Source of the DNA: Pirellulaceae bacterium
GTDB lineage: Bacteria > Planctomycetota > Planctomycetia > Pirellulales > Pirellulaceae
Reading direction: 5' to 3'
Assembly (NCBI GenBank): GCA_030681235.1
Contig: JAUXWY010000262.1
Span: 1 to 37,858, forward strand
DNA: 37,858 bases
Shown here: piece after piece, positions 25,115 through 34,857 of the stretch
Numbering within the stretch: the stretch's first letter is position 1
Layout of the letters: every line of letters begins with the position of its first letter
Program-made: the position numbers and the translations under genes
Notes under the pieces: generated by a model
Told to the model about the DNA's origin: nothing
The model's database searches: none
The model's input: only the letters and a program-made list of their open reading frames with translations

Positions 25115-25209
25115 GAGCCCATCATGAAAACGAAAAAACCGGGGTTTTGATGGTTCGGGATGTTTACTGCCAGATCATTGCAAACCGTACAAACGATACC
25201 CCCTAGGGG
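25115..25209. repeat. Left attachment-like repeat (copy of tRNA-Glu 3' end and flank)
   Basis: The 64 bases 25146-25209 match 34734-34797 at 62 positions and end in CCCCCTAGGGG, the last bases of the tRNA-Glu gene read from the opposite strand. Similarity extends left to 25115 through a shortened form of the tRNA terminator, 12 bases shorter than the right copy. It carries only the tRNA tail, as expected for the distal att site of an element integrated in a tRNA gene. Confidence 0.85.
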
Positions 25210-25352
25210 CAACGCTGTGACGCATTTTCGTAGTGGAATTCGCCAGAATTCCCGTATCTGTGCGCTGCAAGGGAACTCTGGCGAGTTCCACTACGTTCGA
25301 AATCCTTGACTTGTTCAGGTTCAAAATGCTTCACAGCGTTGCCCGAGGGGGG
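25199..25352. repeat. Large imperfect palindrome beginning at the att core
   Basis: The left arm runs from CCCCCTAGGGGCAACGCTG through GTAGTGGAATTCGCCAGAATTCC. The right arm runs from GGAACTCTGGCGAGTTCCAC (25272 onward) to AAAATGCTTCACAGCGTTG and CCCGAGGGGGG. The right arm has an extra 27 bases between its blocks. The inner core AACTCGCCAGAGTT is the same family as the hairpins at 1188-1234. It is non-coding. Confidence 0.8.
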
Positions 25353-25372
25353 TTGAACATCCCCAAGAAACC

Positions 25373-26015: not shown

Positions 26016-26759
26016 CTAATTCGGAATCGCCATAATTCCCTTCGCTAAGCCCATCATTCTTTTTTTGGTCGAAGCGGTTCTTCGAAACGCATTAAGCATT
26101 CGGTCGGCGACTCGAGCGTCTCCATTGGTCGAATTTTCGATGTGAATCGCTTCCGCATATCGCTGCACGCTGCGCGCGTCGGTTTCTGCATCCAAGGCTT
26201 CGGCGATGGCCCCTGAGGCCTCGTCGAACGTTTCAAGAATGATCTTGACGCTTGCCACAATCTCTTTCGCCGAATCCCAGACATTTTTCAGCTCATCCGT
26301 AATTCGGCGGATATATCCGCCAGATCGCTTGGCCCATGCCGCCGCCTCCTTGATCCAATCGGTCAAGTCCGACCACCAGCCGCGGTGGAAAAAACCTCGA
26401 TGCAATTGGACGGCCGGTTGCGAAAATTCGGGGGCGTCCGCCTCGGCAACTATCACTCTATGGGGCGGCCGGTTCGGGCGGTACACGCTGATGATGACCC
26501 CCTTGGCCCCGTCTGATATCCGTTCCGCCGCCCGAGTGCCCACTTCGAAATATCGGCCGTCCGGAACGTGCCGGCCGAACCTCTTCTCGGCGGGCCCCAC
26601 GGCGCGCCAACCATCCGTTGGGTCGATGGCTCCCTCAACACACGCACGCTCCACCTCGATCGCTGACACCGACGGCGAAAACAGTCCGACAACGACCAGC
26701 GTTGCAACCAACGCCAGTGGGCCGATTTTACTCGGCAAAAACAAACTTTTTTTCAACAT
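26016..26759 (-). CDS. Secreted protein of unknown function, sigma54-linked
   Basis: A 247-residue protein. The ATG follows GGAG by 7 bases. It has a clear Sec signal (MLKKSLFLPSKIGPLALVAT, then VVVGLFSPSVSA). The mature N-terminal half is a small beta-rich region (GRYFEVGTRAAERISDGAKG, then VIISVYRP). A W-rich helical segment follows (GWWSDLTDWIKEAAAWAKRS), and the C-terminal half is helical. I recognise no family. A sigma54-type promoter lies 84 bases upstream, reading toward it from the intergenic region shared with the AAA+ regulator gene. It is therefore a candidate target of that regulator (inference). Confidence 0.75.
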   Translation of the reverse strand: MLKKSLFLPSKIGPLALVATLVVVGLFSPSVSAIEVERACVEGAIDPTDGWRAVGPAEKRFGRHVPDGRYFEVGTRAAERISDGAKGVIISVYRPNRPPHRVIVAEADAPEFSQPAVQLHRGFFHRGWWSDLTDWIKEAAAWAKRSGGYIRRITDELKNVWDSAKEIVASVKIILETFDEASGAIAEALDAETDARSVQRYAEAIHIENSTNGDARVADRMLNAFRRTASTKKRMMGLAKGIMAIPN

Positions 26760-26843: not shown

Positions 26844-26859
26844 TGCAACATTCGCGCCA
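26844..26859 (-). promoter_or_regulatory. Sigma54 (-24/-12) promoter, leftward
   Basis: Read on the minus strand: TGGCGCGAATGTTGCA. It keeps GG-N10-GC spacing and differs from TGGCAC-N5-TTGCA at one position. The predicted transcript starts near 26833, about 75 bases before the secreted-protein ATG. Confidence 0.6.
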
Positions 26860-27294
26860 ACCGTTGAAGATTGATCTAATGCAAATTTAAGTTTCTTTAA
26901 TTGCTATTTTGCGTCCTATTATTTTCCTTTGGACCGCACTTGCCCCAGCGGGCTGATGGTCCTGATTTCCCGGGCGGAAGCGTCGGTGGGCCGGGCCGGG
27001 GTTGGTTCGCCCTCGCTTACCGGCCGCCAAATATAACGGTCGCCCCATACCTTAACCACTTCATCTTTTCAGCAGTTGGTGAGCAACCCCGGACAATCTT
27101 TCGTCCGGTTTGGTCTTTTACCGAATTCATTGGTCTTCAAAGGCAATTGCTTCTTGATTGCCTTTGGCGAACGTCATACAGTCTTCTTGGCGGCTTCGTC
27201 ATTCTCTTTGAAACACGGGAGTGTTTTGCTGATTCCTGGCATTGTATGCCTGGAAGAGTCGTCGCCTATTATTTAACTAAACTGGGGTAACCTC
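26860..27294 (+). other. Structured leader region upstream of the AAA+ regulator
   Basis: No gene is supported. 26941-27040 is a G+C-rich block in an A+T-rich setting, with GGCCGG/CCGGCC pairing. Hairpins follow at 27085-27110 (GGAC/GTCC with AACC/GGTT) and 27138-27166 (perfect 10-bp stem CAAAGGCAAT/ATTGCCTTTG, 9-base loop). This could be a structured 5' leader, a small RNA or activator binding sites. A weak TTGATT-N17-TACAGT promoter-like pair occurs here, but I do not rely on it. Confidence 0.4.
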
Positions 27295-30200
27295 ATGTTT
27301 ATGGCAAACGATGGTGTGCTGTCTAATTCAATCTTGCAACGTCCATCAATTTTAATTCAGTACATGCGGGCGATTGGCCCTGGCACGGTGTTATGGAAAT
27401 CAGGTTCAGACTCGATTCGCAATGACGGCACTGCGCACGAAATTCTTAAATGGCTACTTCCAAATTATGCCTTCCAGGCCGTCCCCGACAACCACCTGAA
27501 GTTTAATGGTGTGTCAACCGAAACCGACGTTGATCCCAAGCAATATGATCTAATTGATCAATTGACCGATCAAGATAATTCGCAGTATGAAAACTACCGC
27601 CAGTGGTCGCCAACCTATGCGGCTTTAAAGAAACGAAAGACGCATCTAAATAAGTACCGCGATGACGGCCCCGCATTTTATTACCATGTCGAAACCGCCT
27701 ACCAAATCCCGCAAACAGAACCAATCGTGGTTCTGGGATCACCCGAAGGTTTTCTAGGATATCATCACCCGGCAACAGGCCCGCTCCCTAGCTTTCGAAC
27801 ATTGTTGGATGATTGCGGGTATAGCGCGGCGATCAAACTCGCGGCTCAATGCGAAAACGTTGGCTTGGTGCTAAAAACACCGGACGGTGAGTTCAAAAAA
27901 TTTTCCTTCGAGAATTACCTCGATATCAGTTTGATTTTCTTGGGCCGGACCAGTTACGGACGAACAGTACTCGTCCTGGCCGGTTCTCGTTGCTCGTTTG
28001 GAACACTGGCAGCGACTCGGATCGCTTGCGATTTTTGGCGGCACCCAGTAAATGAAATTGTCTGTCAAGCAATGGATTCCAATCCAAAACCTGCTCTAGA
28101 ACCGGGAATCGTCGTGTATCGAACGAAGTGGCAATTGCGTCCCCCGATTGTTGAGCCATTTGCAACACCAGTAAAACCGGAACCAGACATAACTGACGCG
28201 TCACCATTGCGAATACCTCACTCATTTAAGCCGTACTCGATTGACGAACCGATAGCGGCGGAACTGCTCTATTCTTCGATCGAACCCGATCATAACGAAT
28301 TGTTCTTTGCAGAACGTAGCGAAAAGCTAAAAAGCTTGGAACGACCCGTTTTTGTGCATCTAGCTCGTGAGAATCCGCTGGTAAAATACCTCAACCAAGG
28401 TCCTGTTTCTGTCATTTCCAAGTGGTACCCCGAAGATCTTCGCGACGATGGAAAAGCTAAAGATCTTTTGGCTCGAAAAATTCCGTCATATAACTATGTT
28501 CCCATCGCTCCCGGATTGCCAATCATTCGTAATTCTGCGTCGTTTTCGAATGAAATCGACACAATGCTCCAACCGAAGGATCCAGAAAAAGGCGACTGGG
28601 CAGAAATATTTGAGTACGATCCACAGCCGCGGGCACTCTTCGAATTTTGGGAGAGTTTGGAAAAGTATAGATCGTCCCAACCACAAGAAAATCTACATTT
28701 CGTCGACGATCTAAATGCTCATTTTAGGATTCCTAAGGACGGCCCCTGTATCATATTAGGCGCGCCGGAAAGTTTCGTCTGCTATGGGTTGCCAGGGACC
28801 CAGTTTAATGAGTTAATCGAGAAGGCCCAGTATCCAAATCGTTTTCAATTCAATTGGAAGAAGGGTGAAGGTCCACTTGTGGACAGAAAACTCGATCGAA
28901 TTTTGCGAACGGAGTTGTCGGAAGAGGATGACGGCTTCATTAAATCCGACGTCGGGGTCATTTACATCTCCAAAACGGTTCACCAACGCGACCTGATCAT
29001 TGTTGCAGGAAACAAATGGTTGGGAACTTTAGCTGGCGTGCAACTTCTGTTGGCGGACAACCGACCGGAGATAAATTGCGTTCTCGAGCGATATTTGGCC
29101 GGGGAATTGCAGACGGTCGAGTTGGCTTTCAAATGCCGACGGGTAGATAATCGCCAGCCGCCGATTTCTGGACAAAATATGCATGCGGAAGCCGACGATG
29201 TGGGCGACTTAGACATCACACTGATTAATTCCCTAAACGACTTGAAATACCGCTGGCCGCGTAAAAGTCAGCGATTGTTTGAACCAATTCTGAACGCGCT
29301 GACGAACCCCAATGTGGTTAAGGCCGTTGAAGTCCAGGACGATGGGTTTGTCCTTCGCAGTTCCGGAAGCGAATTGACTGTCTACTGTCCCCACGAATAT
29401 GAGGCTGGCGGGCATAAGATACGCCCAGGAAATAAAACCGCGGCGCAACTTGAAACTATTTCGCGATTGCTCCGCCAGTTTCATGAAACGCGATTGCCCG
29501 CCGCCAACTTTTGCTATCCGTTTTTTATACTGGGGGCCTCTGGCACTGGCAAAGAATTTATTCATCACTTCGTTCATAAAATAGTGGGAGAACTTCTAAC
29601 ACCTGCAAAAGGAACAGAAAAAAAGGCGGCAGTGAAACCTGAGGAGAAAAAGAAAGCCGATTCCAGGCATGCGTCAGCACAATCGTCAGGCAATACCGCC
29701 GCCAGCGAAACATCCGGAAAGTCAAAGGACTCCATTATAACCGCCCAAAACGGCACCGCGAATCAAGTGGAAAAAGTCGAAGCCACTTCAGCTAAAGAAA
29801 ATCGGACTGTTCTTCCACTCCGATCGTTCAACGCAGCTGCGATGACTCCAACTCTTCTGGAAGCCGAACTTTTCGGCCACAAAAAGGGAACATTCAATGA
29901 CGCGTACGAAGACCGGGCGGGGGCGTTTGGCGACATGAATGGCGGTGTGCTATTCTTAGATGAATTCCTGGCGGTCGCCCCCGAGACATTGAAACACATG
30001 CAGAGCGCGCTTCTGAGGGTTATGGAAACGGGCGCTTACAATAGAGTTGGGGACAATATTCCTCGGTCCACGGAAACTCATTTAGTCCTTGCGACTGACG
30101 GCGCCAGATCGAAGGACGGATTGAGGGATCTAGTTGCAACCGGAATGTTCTCCGAAGCATTTTTCAATCGAATCCAAGGGCGGACATTTGCTTTAGAGCC

Positions 30201-31113
30201 ACTCTCTGAACGTCCCATGGAGATTCTTTCGAGCTTTTTTCAGCATCTTCAAGACGAGCAGGAGGAGCCCTACACAATTCAATTATCAGCGTTAAGGCGT
30301 TTGTTGTTTAATAGTTGGAATGGAAATTTCAGAGATTTGCGTACTGTTGCGCAAGATTTGCCAAATGAGTGTCGAAAAAAAGGGGTCACGGCTGCCGACC
30401 TCGATCGGGCTCTGGGTGCTACTCTGAGTAGTAATGATTACAACTCTTCAACTGCCGATGGAAAGTTGATTACCGTTAACATTAGGATTGGCTTGCCGGT
30501 CCCATTCACGGCCATCGGGGAGCAGTTGAAACAGGACCAATGGCAGAAGTTGAATCAGAACAATTGGCCTGTCCTAAACCATAGCATAACCGACACAAAC
30601 GAGAGAAAGGCGATTGCCGATCTAATTAAAATAGTGAACGTCGGTGACTTTGGACAGAATCGGAACGATCTTGGTAAGGGCGCGGGTATGGAGACATCAA
30701 CATCACTACCGTTTTTGGCCTCGTTGCCTAAAACTTCTCCGGAAGCGATTGTGTCGTTTGTAGTTCAACAACTAACTTCTTTAAAGGAAGACTGGCGGAT
30801 AATCCAAGCCGACGACGATTCCAAGGCAATGGCCATTAAGCTATATAACGAATTTCCACCGGCGCGGCTAACAAACAACGGCTGGGCGATCCGTTTTTTG
30901 CGGATCGCGTTGGAAACTGGCTGGGACGTACGAACGGACCAACAAATCAAAGCGATGCGTCATATTGCGTACTTCAAGTTTCGCTCAAAGTGGGGCCCAG
31001 GTGAAAAAAGATCTTTCCCGATTCAACTACAAAATGAAGGTGAACTCGCGACCCACTCACGTGCAGAGTATTCCGCGTACATGGATTTACTAACACGGGT
31101 AATCGCCACGTGA
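27295..31113 (+). CDS. AAA+ protein of the sigma54-activator type with duplicated N-terminal module
   Basis: A 1272-residue protein. Two related modules lie at about residues 25-250 and 365-590: RNDG (42-45) and RDDG (383-386); GSPEGF (148-153) and GAPESF (489-494); LVLAGSRCSFGTLAA (226-240) and LIIVAGNKWLGTLAG (567-581). All are offset by exactly 341. The AAA+ core has Walker A GASGTGKE (747-754), a Lys/Glu/Ala-rich linker insert (about 768-835), ELFGHKKGTFNDA where activators have GAFTGA (865-870), Walker B GGVLFLDE (883-890) and Arg959 in EAFFNRI. The C-terminal 200 residues show no clear helix-turn-helix. It is probably a ligand- or partner-sensing ATPase that activates the two flanking sigma54 promoters; without the canonical Thr in the GAFTGA loop this is uncertain. 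GGGG lies 7 bases before the ATG; an ATG at 27301 is also possible. Confidence 0.85.
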   Translation: MFMANDGVLSNSILQRPSILIQYMRAIGPGTVLWKSGSDSIRNDGTAHEILKWLLPNYAFQAVPDNHLKFNGVSTETDVDPKQYDLIDQLTDQDNSQYENYRQWSPTYAALKKRKTHLNKYRDDGPAFYYHVETAYQIPQTEPIVVLGSPEGFLGYHHPATGPLPSFRTLLDDCGYSAAIKLAAQCENVGLVLKTPDGEFKKFSFENYLDISLIFLGRTSYGRTVLVLAGSRCSFGTLAATRIACDFWRHPVNEIVCQAMDSNPKPALEPGIVVYRTKWQLRPPIVEPFATPVKPEPDITDASPLRIPHSFKPYSIDEPIAAELLYSSIEPDHNELFFAERSEKLKSLERPVFVHLARENPLVKYLNQGPVSVISKWYPEDLRDDGKAKDLLARKIPSYNYVPIAPGLPIIRNSASFSNEIDTMLQPKDPEKGDWAEIFEYDPQPRALFEFWESLEKYRSSQPQENLHFVDDLNAHFRIPKDGPCIILGAPESFVCYGLPGTQFNELIEKAQYPNRFQFNWKKGEGPLVDRKLDRILRTELSEEDDGFIKSDVGVIYISKTVHQRDLIIVAGNKWLGTLAGVQLLLADNRPEINCVLERYLAGELQTVELAFKCRRVDNRQPPISGQNMHAEADDVGDLDITLINSLNDLKYRWPRKSQRLFEPILNALTNPNVVKAVEVQDDGFVLRSSGSELTVYCPHEYEAGGHKIRPGNKTAAQLETISRLLRQFHETRLPAANFCYPFFILGASGTGKEFIHHFVHKIVGELLTPAKGTEKKAAVKPEEKKKADSRHASAQSSGNTAASETSGKSKDSIITAQNGTANQVEKVEATSAKENRTVLPLRSFNAAAMTPTLLEAELFGHKKGTFNDAYEDRAGAFGDMNGGVLFLDEFLAVAPETLKHMQSALLRVMETGAYNRVGDNIPRSTETHLVLATDGARSKDGLRDLVATGMFSEAFFNRIQGRTFALEPLSERPMEILSSFFQHLQDEQEEPYTIQLSALRRLLFNSWNGNFRDLRTVAQDLPNECRKKGVTAADLDRALGATLSSNDYNSSTADGKLITVNIRIGLPVPFTAIGEQLKQDQWQKLNQNNWPVLNHSITDTNERKAIADLIKIVNVGDFGQNRNDLGKGAGMETSTSLPFLASLPKTSPEAIVSFVVQQLTSLKEDWRIIQADDDSKAMAIKLYNEFPPARLTNNGWAIRFLRIALETGWDVRTDQQIKAMRHIAYFKFRSKWGPGEKRSFPIQLQNEGELATHSRAEYSAYMDLLTRVIAT

Positions 31114-31120
31114 GACCTGG

Positions 31121-31152
31121 TTCGGCCCGGCTATTTCACAGCTGGGCCCGAA
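31121..31152. other. Hairpin after the AAA+ gene
   Basis: TTCGGCCC and GGGCCCGAA pair with one bulge around GGCTATTTCACAGCT, starting 8 bases after the stop. There is no T-run, so it may be an attenuating or mRNA-stabilising hairpin rather than an intrinsic terminator. Confidence 0.45.
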
Positions 31153-31178
31153 TTCGCCAGATTCCACCCATTCTCCAT

Positions 31179-31191
31179 TAACAGCATGTTA
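31179..31191. promoter_or_regulatory. Candidate activator-binding palindrome
   Basis: TAACA-GCA-TGTTA is a perfect palindrome centred about 92 bases upstream of the predicted sigma54 start, in the usual range for enhancer sites of sigma54 activators. No second copy was found near the leftward promoter, so this is weak. Confidence 0.25.
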
Positions 31192-31250
31192 TGGCAGTTC
31201 AAAGGCGTATTAACCGTCATTAATGGCGATTTCGCGCTGACCTATTCTGT

Positions 31251-31266
31251 TGGCACTTCGTTTGCT
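31251..31266 (+). promoter_or_regulatory. Perfect sigma54 (-24/-12) promoter
   Basis: TGGCACTTCGTTTGCT is an exact match to TGGCAC-N5-TTGCW with GG-N10-GC spacing. It lies 50 bases before the MFS-like gene and 137 bases after the AAA+ gene. Such a match is expected by chance about once in two million positions per strand at equal base composition. Confidence 0.8.
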
Positions 31267-31316: not shown

Positions 31317-32423
31317 ATGGACTTGAAAACAACGTTTTGGCGAGCCGCCCTTCTGATGGGCGTTTCGTTTTTTAGTATTACCGTAACTGGAATAGGTCTG
31401 GGACTTGTTTTCTCTGAACAATTCGGCCACACGCGTGGCCCGGCAGTGTCTTCGATCGGAGGGGGGCTTGGTACGGCCTTGGTTGGTTTCCTGCTGTTTC
31501 TGGCTGGACGGAATGGCTTTGTGCTTGAACCGCGTCGACATCTAGCTCCGGTCGCAATTTTAACTTTCATTCTAAATCTGATGATTTTCGTCCTGCTGGG
31601 ATGGAACTACTTGGATCTATATTTGGGCGCCGTGTTCGCGGCCTTTGTATCGGTGGCAAACACAACGACGATGGCGCTGGCCATGACTGCTGTCCTTTCC
31701 ACTCAAGTACCGTTTGCGAAGGTTCGCTGTTTCGGAACGCTCGGATTCGCCGCTGCCTTCGTTACCATTTCGCTGCTTGATGTTTGGTCAGCGGTTTTCG
31801 TTGGGTTGATCGGCTTGACCACTTTGGCATTTTCGGTGGTTCCTGAATCGACGATCTGCCGCACAAGTTTCGAACCCACGGCTAAACAAGTCCATCTGTG
31901 GCCAATTTTTGTTGCGATCGTTGCTTACGGACTACTTTCCGCGTCGGCACGTACTTATGAAATCTACGGACCCTTGCGGCTTGTCGGCAGCTCCAGCGGG
32001 GTGGCGGCAGTGCTGATACTCGCGACGCTAGAAATTTTAGCCTTGTTGTGCATCAAGGTTTTAGATCTCACCTGGATTCTTGCCGCAACAACGGCATGGA
32101 TTGCGGCCTATGTCTGCTATGTTTTCTGGGGCGGTTTTGGCGAGATCCTCGCGATGGTATTTATCTCGGTCAATTGCTTAGGGCAAAGCAGCTTGATCCA
32201 ATTCGCGGCGCGTCAAAGTCATGCTCCGGGTAACGTCCAATTGTGGTATCAACTCACTGGGACAGCAGTTGGAATTGCAATCGCATGCATTTCGTCGCAG
32301 TTGGACTCTTTGGCTTCGGTCTGGTTTTTTGGTTTGAGTGTATCAGCGATTGTGGCACCCGGGCTCTGGGTGTGTGCCTGGCTCTTGAGAAAAAGTGGCG
32401 ACTTGATGAGAGGAACAAAGTGA
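31317..32423 (+). CDS. MFS-like polytopic membrane protein
   Basis: A 368-residue protein with about eleven hydrophobic segments. The pattern, including VRCFGTLGFAAAF before a membrane segment in the middle of the N-terminal half, resembles the MFS_1-like/nucleoside-symporter group, where VRLWGSxGF is typical. No substrate motif is clear. The second half contains GSSSGVAAVLILATLEILAL. It is somewhat short for a 12-helix MFS protein. A perfect sigma54 promoter directly precedes it, and a helical protein gene follows 60 bases downstream, so the two probably form one sigma54-dependent unit. It could export or sense a signal molecule (inference). Confidence 0.75.
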   Translation: MDLKTTFWRAALLMGVSFFSITVTGIGLGLVFSEQFGHTRGPAVSSIGGGLGTALVGFLLFLAGRNGFVLEPRRHLAPVAILTFILNLMIFVLLGWNYLDLYLGAVFAAFVSVANTTTMALAMTAVLSTQVPFAKVRCFGTLGFAAAFVTISLLDVWSAVFVGLIGLTTLAFSVVPESTICRTSFEPTAKQVHLWPIFVAIVAYGLLSASARTYEIYGPLRLVGSSSGVAAVLILATLEILALLCIKVLDLTWILAATTAWIAAYVCYVFWGGFGEILAMVFISVNCLGQSSLIQFAARQSHAPGNVQLWYQLTGTAVGIAIACISSQLDSLASVWFFGLSVSAIVAPGLWVCAWLLRKSGDLMRGTK

Positions 32424-32483: not shown

Positions 32484-33266
32484 ATGGACTTGAAATCGTT
32501 GAAATGTCTGGTGGAGAGCCTGTCCGAGAAGAATGCCGCCGTATACTCGGAAGGTGAGCAGTTGAAGATCTATTTGCCGGTTTTAAACGAATTGAAATTA
32601 ATCACGAATGTTGCCGAGTTATGCAAAGTCGACGACAAGCTTCTCTGTCCGGCAGAAATCATCTGGTGCCTGCAATTTCGCCTCGATCGCTGGAATACAA
32701 TTCTGAAATCATTTCGCATTGTCGAGCGTCGAATGACAAGACAAATTGAGGTCATCGAAGACCTCGTCAGCCACTTGAACGCTCTTCTTACAGAGTTTAA
32801 TTGGGGACAGTTCGAAATGATCCGAGCGAACGTGGGAGCATTGTGCCAAAAATCGCTGCCTGACAAGTCTGCGATCGGCATAGCCGAAAGAATCATTGAA
32901 TGTGCCAAGAACCAAGTCGGTCGACGATTTGCAATTGACTGCGTGTGTATTGGCGACGTTGTGCTGCAATATTCCATCGGCAATCCGGACTCTGGAAGGC
33001 TGCGGCAATTGACTTCAAGTGCGATCAAACAGTGGCGCAATGGTGATATATCTGCTCGGGAATTGGTCGTAATCTTGAACCGCGTCATTCGTAAAGTTGA
33101 TGTTCCCGTGCAGAAATTCGAAGAATTCGCTCGGGAGCTCCAAGATATTCATATCATCATTGGATCTCAAAAACTGGACGACGCGAAATATCGACAATGT
33201 AACCTTGCAGTTTCCTCAAATATTCGTCGTCTTCAATTAATTGTCGAAGGTGGGTCTGACAATTAG
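32484..33266 (+). CDS. Helical protein of unknown function
   Basis: A 260-residue protein with no signal peptide or membrane segment. I chose the ATG at 32484; a TTG at 32469 would add five residues. It is almost entirely amphipathic helix (RLDRWNTILKSFRIVERRMT, RQIEVIEDLVSHLNALLTEF, VQKFEEFARELQDIHIIIGS). Several Cys residues are present without a CxxC ligand pattern. No family is recognised. It shares an ATGGACTTGAAA start with the preceding MFS-like gene and is probably co-transcribed with it from the sigma54 promoter. Its role is unknown. Confidence 0.7.
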   Translation: MDLKSLKCLVESLSEKNAAVYSEGEQLKIYLPVLNELKLITNVAELCKVDDKLLCPAEIIWCLQFRLDRWNTILKSFRIVERRMTRQIEVIEDLVSHLNALLTEFNWGQFEMIRANVGALCQKSLPDKSAIGIAERIIECAKNQVGRRFAIDCVCIGDVVLQYSIGNPDSGRLRQLTSSAIKQWRNGDISARELVVILNRVIRKVDVPVQKFEEFARELQDIHIIIGSQKLDDAKYRQCNLAVSSNIRRLQLIVEGGSDN

Positions 33267-33706
33267 GGCAAACGAACGCTTGAGAGTTGGTCGCACACCG
33301 TTACAAACTCCGGAATCTAGATAACACATCCCGCTCAAGGCGGGGTGTTGGCCAAGCCGCGATAAAATATAAGGTTCGCCGTTGAACTTTACACGTCACG
33401 GCTAAAATCGGCCCACCCGCCGCGCGCAACAAGACGCCTATTCGCGTAAACATTGGTTTCACCGTGGATTAGCGTGAAGGGTTGTCCGAGTTTGGTCGAG
33501 TCGAGTTTCCCGGCCATCTGCGCCAAATTGAATTGGCTAATTCGTTCAACATCGTGCCAAAAAGGGTATGGCGCACTTCTTGCCGAAATCTGCCGCGTAA
33601 TCTGCCGAAATTCGCAGTTGGGAAACGTGCCATAAAGATACTACTCTAATTGACATTTCCCGACTGGGCCGTTTCAGTCTTTTCGAACTGTAAAGGAGCC
33701 CACGCT
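33267..33706. other. Intergenic region with a hairpin
   Basis: No gene is supported. At 33326-33348 ACATCCCGC and GCGGGGTGT form a 9-bp stem with one wobble pair and a TCAAG loop, but no T-run. A short direct repeat AATCTGCCG occurs twice around 33590-33610. AAAGGAG near 33693 is the ribosome binding site of the recombinase remnant. Confidence 0.5.
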
Positions 33707-33937
33707 ATGACAATCGCATGTTACTGTCGGGTCAGTACCCGCCAGCAAAAGAACGACTCACAAGAAGCCGAAATCAAGAAATGGTTGAAGAACAACGGCA
33801 TCCATGCCGCCAAGATCGCATGGTATTTCGACCATGAGTCTGGAAAGACTCTTTCCCGCCCGGAATTCGACCGACTACAAAAGGATATCTTCGATGGCCG
33901 AGTGCGCACGGTGATTGTCTGGAAGTTGGATCGATTG
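33707..33937 (+). pseudogene. Serine recombinase, N-terminal fragment
   Basis: 77 residues of a resolvase/invertase catalytic domain survive: MTIACYCRVSTRQQKNDSQE with nucleophile Ser10, then SRPEFDRLQKDIFDGRVRTV and VWKLDRL. Homology stops at Leu77, exactly where it joins a metallopeptidase in another frame; the frame itself runs on to 34024 with unrelated residues. A good Shine-Dalgarno (AAAGGAG) is kept. The DNA-binding part is lost, so it is not an active recombinase. Confidence 0.8.
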
Positions 33938-34545
33938 CCCCCACCGCGACACGGCTTGAGGTCGCCCGCGCCTACGCGATCAGTAAACTCGGCTGGATTC
34001 GAGCCCAACAGCACAAACTTATGAACCAGGCTCGCGAAACTCTCCGGCAGTTTATCGAACGGGAAAGCCACTACCTGTGGGGGCGGCGTTATTTGCTGTC
34101 GGTGAAATACAGAGACGGCAAGCCCTCGGTAGAGCTGGACCACAAGCGCATCGCCCTTTCAGTCCGACCGGGAAGCGACCAAATCAAGCGAGCCGCAGTT
34201 CTACATGAATGGCACAAGAAGTTGCTCCACGCAGCTGTTCCTCCTCTGATCGCAAAGTGGGAAAAAAAGCTCGGCGTAACGGTCACGGGATACTTTCTGC
34301 AACGGATGAAGACGAAATGGGGCGGCTGTAATCACAGAGTTGCGCACATTCGCCTCAATACGGAACTGGTGAAAAAGCCGAAGGATCTTCTCGAATACGT
34401 CATCGTCCATGAAATGACCCATCTGCATGAGCCGACTCATAGCGACCGCTTCATTGCCATCCTTGATCAGCATTACCCTTCTTGGCATGAAGCCCGCGCG
34501 GAACTCAACGATTTGCCGCTGGCGGCGGAAACCTGGAAGGGGTGA
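33934..34545 (+). pseudogene. YgjP-type M48 metallopeptidase, N-terminus lost
   Basis: The frame gives IAPTATRLEVARAYAISKLG, then WIRAQQHKL, and continues to an intact C-terminus with TKWGGCN, zinc-binding HEMTH and HSDRF. Only the first 30-40 residues of the family are missing, replaced by the recombinase fragment in a different frame. Translation could restart at ATG 34021, giving 174 residues with a complete active site, so it may still be made. This family is often encoded beside hsdR in type I restriction loci, and an hsdS tail lies at 23.8 kb. Confidence 0.75.
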
Positions 34546-34690: not shown

Positions 34691-34797
34691 GAGCCCCATC
34701 AGCGAAACGAAAAAACCCCGAGAAAACCTGGGGTTTGATGGTTCGGAATGTTTGCTGCCAGATCATTGCAAACCGTACAAACGATACCCCCTAGGGG
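34691..34797. repeat. Right attachment-like repeat (tRNA-Glu 3' end and flank)
   Basis: This is the partner of the left repeat. It includes the last 11 bases of the intact tRNA-Glu gene and its full-length terminator. Confidence 0.85.
34710..34736 (-). terminator. Intrinsic terminator of tRNA-Glu
   Basis: On the minus strand AAACCCC and GGGGTTT pair around a 10-base loop, followed by a run of six T. It lies about 50 bases beyond the tRNA 3' end. The left att copy has lost the loop. Confidence 0.75.
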
Positions 34798-34857
34798 ACT
34801 CGAACCCCTGTTACCGGACTGAGAATCCGGGGTCCTGGGCCACTAGACGAAGGGGGC
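34785..34857 (-). tRNA. tRNA-Glu (anticodon CTC)
   Basis: A 73-nt cloverleaf on the minus strand. The acceptor strand is GCCCCCT, the D arm begins GTCT, the anticodon stem CCGGA/TCCGG encloses TTCTCAG (anticodon CTC), and the T arm is AGGGG-TTCGAGT-CCCCT. It closely resembles E. coli tRNA-Glu. CCA is not encoded. Position 1 pairs with 72 as G-U, and the discriminator is A rather than the usual G. The 3' end is the integration site of the island. Confidence 0.95.

What the first reader, a model, noticed from the sequence alone, without database searches (positions are those of the whole stretch)
26844..31266. Outward-facing sigma54 promoters on both sides of a sigma54-activator-type gene: a self-contained cassette
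Seen: TGGCACTTCGTTTGCT at 31251 (exact consensus) reads into an MFS-like gene and a helical protein gene. TGGCGCGAATGTTGCA on the minus strand at 26859-26844 (one mismatch) reads into a secreted-protein gene. Between them lies an AAA+ gene of the sigma54-activator type. Known: such promoters are silent without an AAA+ activator, and activator genes often sit beside their targets. Inference: the island carries a sensor-activator plus three effectors as one inducible module. I know of no described system with this gene set.
Basis: partly seen in the sequence, partly recalled or inferred. Interest (0 to 1): 0.88.

Follow-up and report, generated by a model that had tools for sequence, protein, structure and literature searches.

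The report
Orphan AAA+ gene on tRNA island
A small genomic island beside a tRNA gene carries a large, very rare ATPase that descends from sigma54 activators but whose sigma54-touching part has decayed, next to a membrane-protein gene that may itself have a sigma54 promoter.

Summary
Both sigma54-type sites exist as described. The one before the MFS-like gene (31251-31266) is exact; the minus-strand one (26859-26844) has one mismatch. By count they are near chance, but both lie correctly placed upstream of genes. Sister genome G003 has a weaker site at almost the same distance before the MFS-like gene, and the genome encodes sigma54. The central inference fails: the AAA+ protein is not a credible sigma54 activator. 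Its contact loop GAFTGA reads GTFNDA here and GAATDL in its only ortholog found, and no C-terminal DNA-binding domain was recognised. The secreted and helical genes have no credible relative in the sister genomes; only AAA+ plus MFS-like recurs (G003). New here: the finding lies inside a 9.6-kb segment bounded by 79-bp direct repeats (94% identical, last 43 bp exact) that include the 3' end of tRNA-Glu: an integrated island of lower G+C. Sister genomes carry VirD4-like, coiled-coil, VWA and ABC/FtsX-like genes around the same genes near a V-type ATPase operon. Most likely: an island-borne, activator-derived ATPase repurposed to act with a membrane partner; any sigma54 control comes from the host's own activators.

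The parts
25131..25209 (.). left copy of a 79-bp direct repeat (attL-like); its end repeats the 13 nt at the tRNA-Glu 3' end
   Evidence: 93.7% identical to 34719-34797, last 43 bp exact
34719..34797 (.). right copy of the direct repeat (attR-like), running into the 3' end of tRNA-Glu
34785..34857 (-). tRNA-Glu (CTC), presumed integration target
26844..26859 (-). sigma54-type promoter-like site, one mismatch, 84 nt before the secreted-protein ATG
   Evidence: no ortholog to compare
26016..26759 (-). secreted-type protein, 247 aa, one N-terminal hydrophobic segment; orphan
   Evidence: no match in the 97 other genomes
27295..31113 (+). AAA+ protein, 1272 aa; the start shared with the ortholog is the ATG at 27301
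27343..28074 (+). orphan domain, copy 1 (residues 17-260)
   Evidence: no Pfam hit, no credible PDB relative by profile
28369..29097 (+). orphan domain, copy 2 (residues 359-601), 25% identical to copy 1
29533..30435 (+). NtrC/NifA-type AAA+ module: Walker A 747-754, loop GTFNDA 865-870, Walker B DE 889-890, Arg 959, sensor-II Arg 1013; 68 residues after Walker A are absent from the ortholog
   Evidence: motif names recalled
31110..31180 (+). stable hairpin after the AAA+ stop codon, possible transcript end (no T run)
   Evidence: -27 kcal/mol, z -4.0, 0 of 200 shuffles as stable; not in the terminator list
31251..31266 (+). sigma54-type promoter-like site, exact consensus, 50 nt before the MFS-like ATG
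   Evidence: weaker site 49 nt before the ATG in G003
31317..32423 (+). MFS-like polytopic membrane protein, 368 aa, ortholog beside AAA+ in G003 (54% identity)
   Evidence: no Pfam family
32484..33266 (+). helical protein, 260 aa, orphan
33650..34024 (+). remnant of a serine recombinase (N-terminal part only)
   Evidence: PF00239 positions 1-75 of 145
34021..34545 (+). YgjP-like metallopeptidase lacking its N-terminus
   Evidence: PF01863 positions 48-206 of 207

Best explanation
Its recurring core is a two-gene unit: a large AAA+ protein and an MFS-like membrane protein. The AAA+ module descends from the sigma54-activator (NtrC/NifA) group and keeps the residues for ATP binding and part of those for hydrolysis. 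Its sigma54-contact loop has decayed and no DNA-binding domain is recognised. It is fused to a duplicated N-terminal domain of unknown kind that is better conserved than the ATPase. Proposed mechanism (inferred): the N-terminal pair binds a ligand or partner, and the ATPase ring uses this to remodel or gate a protein partner, most likely the co-inherited membrane protein. The MFS-like gene is probably transcribed on its own from a sigma54-type promoter driven by another of the cell's activators, not by this protein. Shown: anatomy, loop decay in both orthologs, constraint on the genes, AAA+/MFS linkage in two genomes, island repeats, a sigma54 gene. Inferred: ATPase activity, partner, promoter activity, island mobility.
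For: Island: 79-bp direct repeat 25131-25209 / 34719-34797, 94% identical with the last 43 bp exact, ending in the 3' end of tRNA-Glu 34785-34857; G+C 50.4% inside versus 56.0% and 56.6% in the flanks. AAA+: PF00158 E 2.4e-28, best solved chain NifA, Walker B, one arginine finger and sensor II kept, Walker A kept. Loop: GTFNDA in the window, GAATDL in G003; among 35 other sigma54-type proteins F is kept in 35, T in 34, the last A in 35. PMC2941729 (passages): in PspF the threonine is critical and only tyrosine can replace the phenylalanine. Constraint: amino-acid identity 62% N-piece, 45% C-piece, 54% MFS-like, with pS 0.74-0.81 near or at saturation against pN 0.25-0.39. AAA+/MFS-like adjacency in window and G003, tandem versus divergent. 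sigma54 gene in G000 and GAFTGA-bearing proteins in the same genome (L002, L005, L008).
Against: The window copy keeps the loop phenylalanine and only the G003 copy lost it, so residual sigma54 contact in the window protein is not excluded. Loops with D for the second G are common here (20 of 35) and one G-to-D change is active in NorR. Some activators lack a DNA-binding domain (PMC7175178, passages). The first arginine of the FREDLYYR region is Ser in both orthologs, so ATPase competence is uncertain. AAA+/MFS linkage rests on two genomes. No intact integrase was recognised in the island and no empty site was sought. Structure models were too poor to use (pLDDT 36 and 50).
Confidence: 0.5

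Rival explanations
1. One reading: the AAA+ protein is a true sigma54 activator, perhaps acting from solution, that senses a signal through its N-terminal domains and switches on the two flanking sigma54 promoters.
For: Both sites sit in promoter positions; the MFS site has a counterpart in G003 at nearly the same distance (49 versus 50 nt; 0.05% of 20,000 Markov shuffles have a site within 3 nt of it); AAA+ family match; activators without DNA-binding domains exist; the window loop keeps F.
Against: Loop degenerate in both orthologs and F replaced by A in G003; no HTH; the secreted gene is an orphan; no site with up to 1 mismatch in the G003 C1 stretch that holds the AAA+/MFS-like intergenic region.
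Confidence: 0.12
2. The sigma54-like sites are chance matches; the genes use other promoters and the AAA+/MFS pair is simply island cargo.
For: Window count at chance; flanking DNA around the G003 site shows no significant conservation (626 of 1000 shuffles reach the best 41-mer identity); the G003 site has two mismatches, one of them in the -12 element.
Against: An exact site in an upstream zone, and 2 of 7 core sites in 2.5% of positions.
Confidence: 0.35
3. The AAA+ protein is the core of a larger multi-gene conflict or envelope system (AAA+, MFS-like, VirD4-like ATPase, coiled-coil membrane protein, VWA protein, ABC/FtsX-like) of which the window holds a reduced form.
For: In G003 four genes follow AAA+ on the same strand and a VirD4-like gene follows the MFS-like gene; VirD4-like and VWA proteins are 84% and 89% identical between G002 and G003.
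Against: No match in the window genome for the two of these that were searched (VirD4-like at E 1e-5; VWA at E 0.1); neighbours may be unrelated cargo; PADLOC gave only RtcR-type AAA+ matches for the AAA+ protein and a mad8 match of 32 bits for the VirD4-like protein.
Confidence: 0.25

Closest known systems
Sigma54 activators (bacterial enhancer-binding proteins; NifA, NtrC, PspF)
   Same: AAA+ domain of the same family; Walker A and B, one arginine finger and sensor II kept
   Different: GAFTGA loop decayed, no HTH found, orphan duplicated N-terminal domain, 68-residue insertion after Walker A in the window copy; the two orthologs form one clade apart from 35 other sigma54-type proteins (100/100 support, long branch, midpoint root)
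Sigma54-activator relatives with defective GAFTGA (VpsR, DhaR, YplP named in PMC3162934, passages)
   Same: family members that cannot be filed as sigma54 activators because the loop is missing
   Different: those are regulators (recalled); this one has unknown domains, no recognised HTH and a membrane-protein neighbour
RtcR (CARF-AAA-HTH)
   Same: best PADLOC match of the AAA part, 1.7e-39
   Different: no CARF or HTH recognised; NCBIfam RtcR 104.7 bits against a cut-off of 650
tRNA-integrated genomic islands
   Same: direct repeats including the tRNA 3' end, lower G+C, recombinase remnant, HTH_17 fragment just under its cut-off
   Different: no intact integrase recognised; the repeat reaches 66 nt beyond the tRNA
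NTP-dependent conflict systems of multicellular bacteria (PMC7159879)
   Same: NTPase-centred clusters, also in planctomycetes (passages)
   Different: a term search of that text found NtrC once and no VirD4, MFS or sigma-54; its systems' own domains were not tested here

Membership tests
Sigma54 activator (bEBP) | PF00158 AAA+ domain | tested here: met
   E 2.4e-28, 99.3 bits against cut-off 20.2
Sigma54 activator (bEBP) | GAFTGA sigma54-contact loop | tested here: not met
   GTFNDA and GAATDL; F kept in 35 of 35 others; papers PMC2941729 and PMC12316311 (passages)
Sigma54 activator (bEBP) | C-terminal HTH (usual, not universal) | tested here: not met
   no Pfam match in the C-terminal 240 aa at E up to 10
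Sigma54 activator (bEBP) | ATP hydrolysis by a hexameric ring | not testable with these tools
   catalytic residues partly kept; not measured
Sigma54-dependent promoter | -24/-12 consensus in promoter position | tested here: met
Sigma54-dependent promoter | conserved in orthologous locus | tested here: inconclusive
   two-mismatch site in G003 at 49 nt; flanks not conserved above chance; second site has no ortholog
Sigma54-dependent promoter | rpoN-dependent transcript start | not testable with these tools
   needs transcripts
RtcR | N-terminal CARF domain and full-length equivalog score | tested here: not met
tRNA-integrated genomic island | direct repeats including a tRNA end | tested here: met
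tRNA-integrated genomic island | own integrase | tested here: not met
   only a truncated serine recombinase among the ORFs searched
tRNA-integrated genomic island | empty site in a relative | not tested
MFS transporter | Pfam MFS profile and 12 helices | tested here: inconclusive
   no Pfam or PDB profile match; 10 and 11 hydrophobic segments in the two orthologs by a simple scan

The most novel reading that the evidence does not exclude
A new kind of AAA+ machine: an ancient transcription-activator ATPase that lost its sigma54 contact and DNA binding, gained a duplicated domain of unknown fold, and became the motor of an island-borne, membrane-coupled system (with VirD4-like, VWA and ABC/FtsX-like partners in sister genomes) that is confined to one genus among the genomes searched.
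Probability: 0.25. Interest if true: 0.65.

Novelty: new variant of a known kind. Interest (0 to 1): 0.42.

Why it matters
If true, it shows a transcription-activator AAA+ module recruited for a job away from transcription, within a genomic island, and adds a duplicated domain that matches nothing credible in Pfam or the PDB by sequence. It also warns that a sigma54-activator family match beside sigma54 sites does not make a regulatory cassette: the contact loop must be read.

Tried and rejected
Structure of the orphan N-terminal domain: AlphaFold2 on the two-sequence alignment gave pLDDT 36, on the four-repeat alignment pLDDT 50, pTM 0.50; Foldseek of the latter against the PDB gave no match at E <= 0.001 and a best E of 0.55; not used.

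More relatives of the N-terminal domain: 392 phylum genomes with a single sequence (1 hit, itself), 242 family genomes with the two-row profile (G000, G003 and one E 0.009 hit in G653), 392 phylum genomes with the repeat profile (itself and one E 0.005 hit in G429). G000 is counted in each of these numbers, and only the best few first-look candidates per genome were scored. The G653 and G429 hits lie on the strand opposite to longer, well-formed frames and were rejected as chance. Plasmids at E up to 1 and viral contigs gave nothing. The one genome-contig scan gave only an ordinary sigma54-type protein.

RtcR membership was considered because of the PADLOC score and rejected. Conservation of the whole MFS upstream region was considered as support for the promoter and rejected: not above shuffles. 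In the alignment the Walker A of the window row is misplaced because of the insertion; those columns were ignored and Walker A was read directly.
Full report
What was claimed and what is there. By count alone they are unremarkable: 1.46 matches with up to one mismatch are expected in the window, and 45 of 100 shuffles had at least two. By position they are better than chance. Without the core rule it is 3 of 10; the third lies upstream of the ABC gene in G003 but lacks the GC core. The zones came from a mechanical gene model, and the test is post hoc. The only exact match in all that DNA is the one before the MFS-like gene.

A sister genome gives a modest second witness for the MFS site. In G003 the 264-bp region between the AAA+ and MFS-like genes holds, on the MFS strand, one site with up to three mismatches: TGGCATAGTATTCGCA, two mismatches, core kept, 49 nt before the ATG, against 50 nt in the window. 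A core site with up to two mismatches within 3 nt of that distance arose in 0.05% of 20,000 Markov shuffles, anywhere in the region in 1.3%. Against this, the surrounding DNA shows no significant conservation: local alignment scores were reached by 1623 and 410 of 2000 shuffles, and although the site-anchored diagonal holds the best 41-mer identity (22 of 41), 626 of 1000 shuffles reach that. One of the two mismatches is in the -12 element. G002 cannot be asked because its contig starts inside the MFS-like gene. The second site has no comparison: the secreted protein matched nothing in 97 other genomes. The window genome encodes sigma54 (PF04552, E 9.3e-59).

The AAA+ protein is not a credible sigma54 activator. 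Its AAA+ domain belongs to the family (PF00158; best solved relative NifA). But the loop that contacts sigma54 reads GTFNDA in the window and GAATDL in the G003 ortholog. I aligned it with 35 other sigma54-type proteins: 7 of the 12 others that one search found in the same genome, 27 from relatives and 1. The loop phenylalanine is kept in 35 of 35, the threonine in 34 of 35 and the last alanine in 35 of 35. The second glycine is G in 14, D in 20 and N in 1 (counted), so GAFTDA is ordinary in this lineage, in line with an active G-to-D change in NorR (PMC2941729, passages). That paper also reports that in PspF the threonine is critical and only tyrosine can replace the phenylalanine. Both orthologs also share Ser for the first Arg of the FREDLYYR region and His for an Arg before sensor I that is invariant in the 35. 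In a tree of 37 rows the two form one clade (100/100) on a long branch apart from the other 35; the root is a midpoint and the place of a long branch is unsure. No HTH was found, which alone would not exclude activation (PMC7175178, passages).

Architecture. Residues 17-260 and 359-601 are two copies of one domain, 25% identical, with no Pfam match at E up to 10 and no credible PDB relative by profile (best E 0.34, a short match to an RNA helicase). The N-terminal piece is better conserved between the two genomes (62%) than the C-terminal piece with the ATPase (45%); in the three pieces tested silent changes are saturated or nearly so while amino-acid changes are not, so the genes are under constraint. 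The window copy has 68 extra residues after Walker A. Besides G003, no credible N-terminal relative appeared in the 97 other genomes (full length, E 1e-25; 27 other genomes matched, through the AAA+ part only), in the 241 other family genomes, or in the 391 other phylum genomes. These sets overlap, and only the best few candidates per genome were scored.

Neighbours. The MFS-like gene follows AAA+ in the window after 203 bp that start with a stable hairpin (z -4.0), so separate transcription is plausible. In G003 the two genes are divergent; the MFS-like proteins are 54% identical. G003's AAA+ gene spans two contigs whose ends overlap by exactly 141 bp. In G003 the MFS-like gene is followed by a VirD4/TrwB-like gene (PF10412), and on the other side AAA+ is followed on the same strand by a coiled-coil protein, a VWA protein with a lipoprotein-like start (recalled motif), an ABC ATPase and an FtsX-like protein whose Pfam score is under the cut-off. 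G002 has the VirD4-like (84%) and VWA (89%) proteins; its AAA+ gene was not found, but its two contigs end next to where it should lie, and nothing links those contigs by sequence. No match to the VirD4-like protein at E 1e-5 or the VWA protein at E 0.1 was found in the window genome, which is 92% complete; the VirD4-like protein also has a 25% match in G014 and the VWA protein a 26% match, E 0.01, in G001. G001 has the V-type ATPase operon but another neighbourhood. The helical protein has no credible relative in the three sister genomes (one E 0.016 match over 81 residues in a frame of 1865).

The island. A search for repeats between the V-type ATPase operon and the glycosyltransferase-like gene found a 79-bp direct repeat, 25131-25209 and 34719-34797, 94% identical with the last 43 bp exact. 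The right copy runs 13 nt into the 3' end of tRNA-Glu(CTC), 34785-34857 minus, the usual anatomy of a tRNA-integrated island. G+C is 50.4% between the repeats, 56.0% to the left and 56.6% to the right. Inside are a serine-recombinase remnant, a YgjP-like gene lacking its start, and an HTH_17 fragment just under its cut-off, perhaps of an excisionase. No intact integrase was recognised and I could not look for an empty site. In G003 the AAA+ cluster lies between the same V-type ATPase operon and the Zn-ribbon gene that borders the island here, so the neighbourhood looks like a hotspot; that rests on placing two contigs by their overlap. No repeat was found between the two flanks tested in G003.

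Mechanism. My commitment: the AAA+ protein is an ATP-driven remodelling or gating factor, with the N-terminal pair as the sensing or docking part and the MFS-like protein as its most likely partner; any sigma54 control of the MFS-like gene comes from canonical activators of the host, of which the same genome shows at least three with GAFTGA (L002, L005, L008). Shown: loop decay, domain duplication, gene linkage in two genomes, constraint, repeats. Inferred: partner, activity, mobility, promoter function.

Literature. I searched full texts for GAFTGA-lacking sigma54 relatives, planctomycete sigma54 activators, solution activators and conflict systems and saw passages of PMC2941729, PMC3162934, PMC12316311, PMC7159879 and PMC7175178; the rest I saw as listings only. 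PMC3162934 states that proteins lacking the loop have been mistaken for sigma54 activators. None of the listings or passages described this gene set; that is not proof of absence from print. That the genome is planctomycete is my inference from recall of its gene content; no call named it.

Noticed in passing
window 25198-25353: Large imperfect palindrome (outer arms 31 nt, 87% complementary; single-strand DNA fold z -12.5) right at the left repeat; looks like a MITE or fold-back element.
   Followed up: partly
window 33650-34545: Serine recombinase N-terminal part runs directly into a YgjP-like gene that lacks its own start, as if a deletion had joined them.
   Followed up: partly
L002-L008, L010-L036, L038: In 20 of 35 sigma54-type AAA+ proteins compared the contact loop reads TDA rather than TGA at its end; worth testing whether these still act on sigma54.
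   Followed up: no
L076:3555-8647 (G000 contig C422): A distant paralog of the MFS-like gene lies beside two ATPase genes on the same strand, one with AAA_16 and TPR repeats.
   Followed up: partly
L067:5652-7103 (G001): A 483-aa protein with many Cys-Ser-Val repeats, a few kb after the V-type ATPase A gene.
   Followed up: no
L041:5618-6349 (G003): ORF with a PDDEXK_3 match (PF13366, E 7e-13) covering only its first third, between the VirD4-like gene and the V-type ATPase operon.
   Followed up: no
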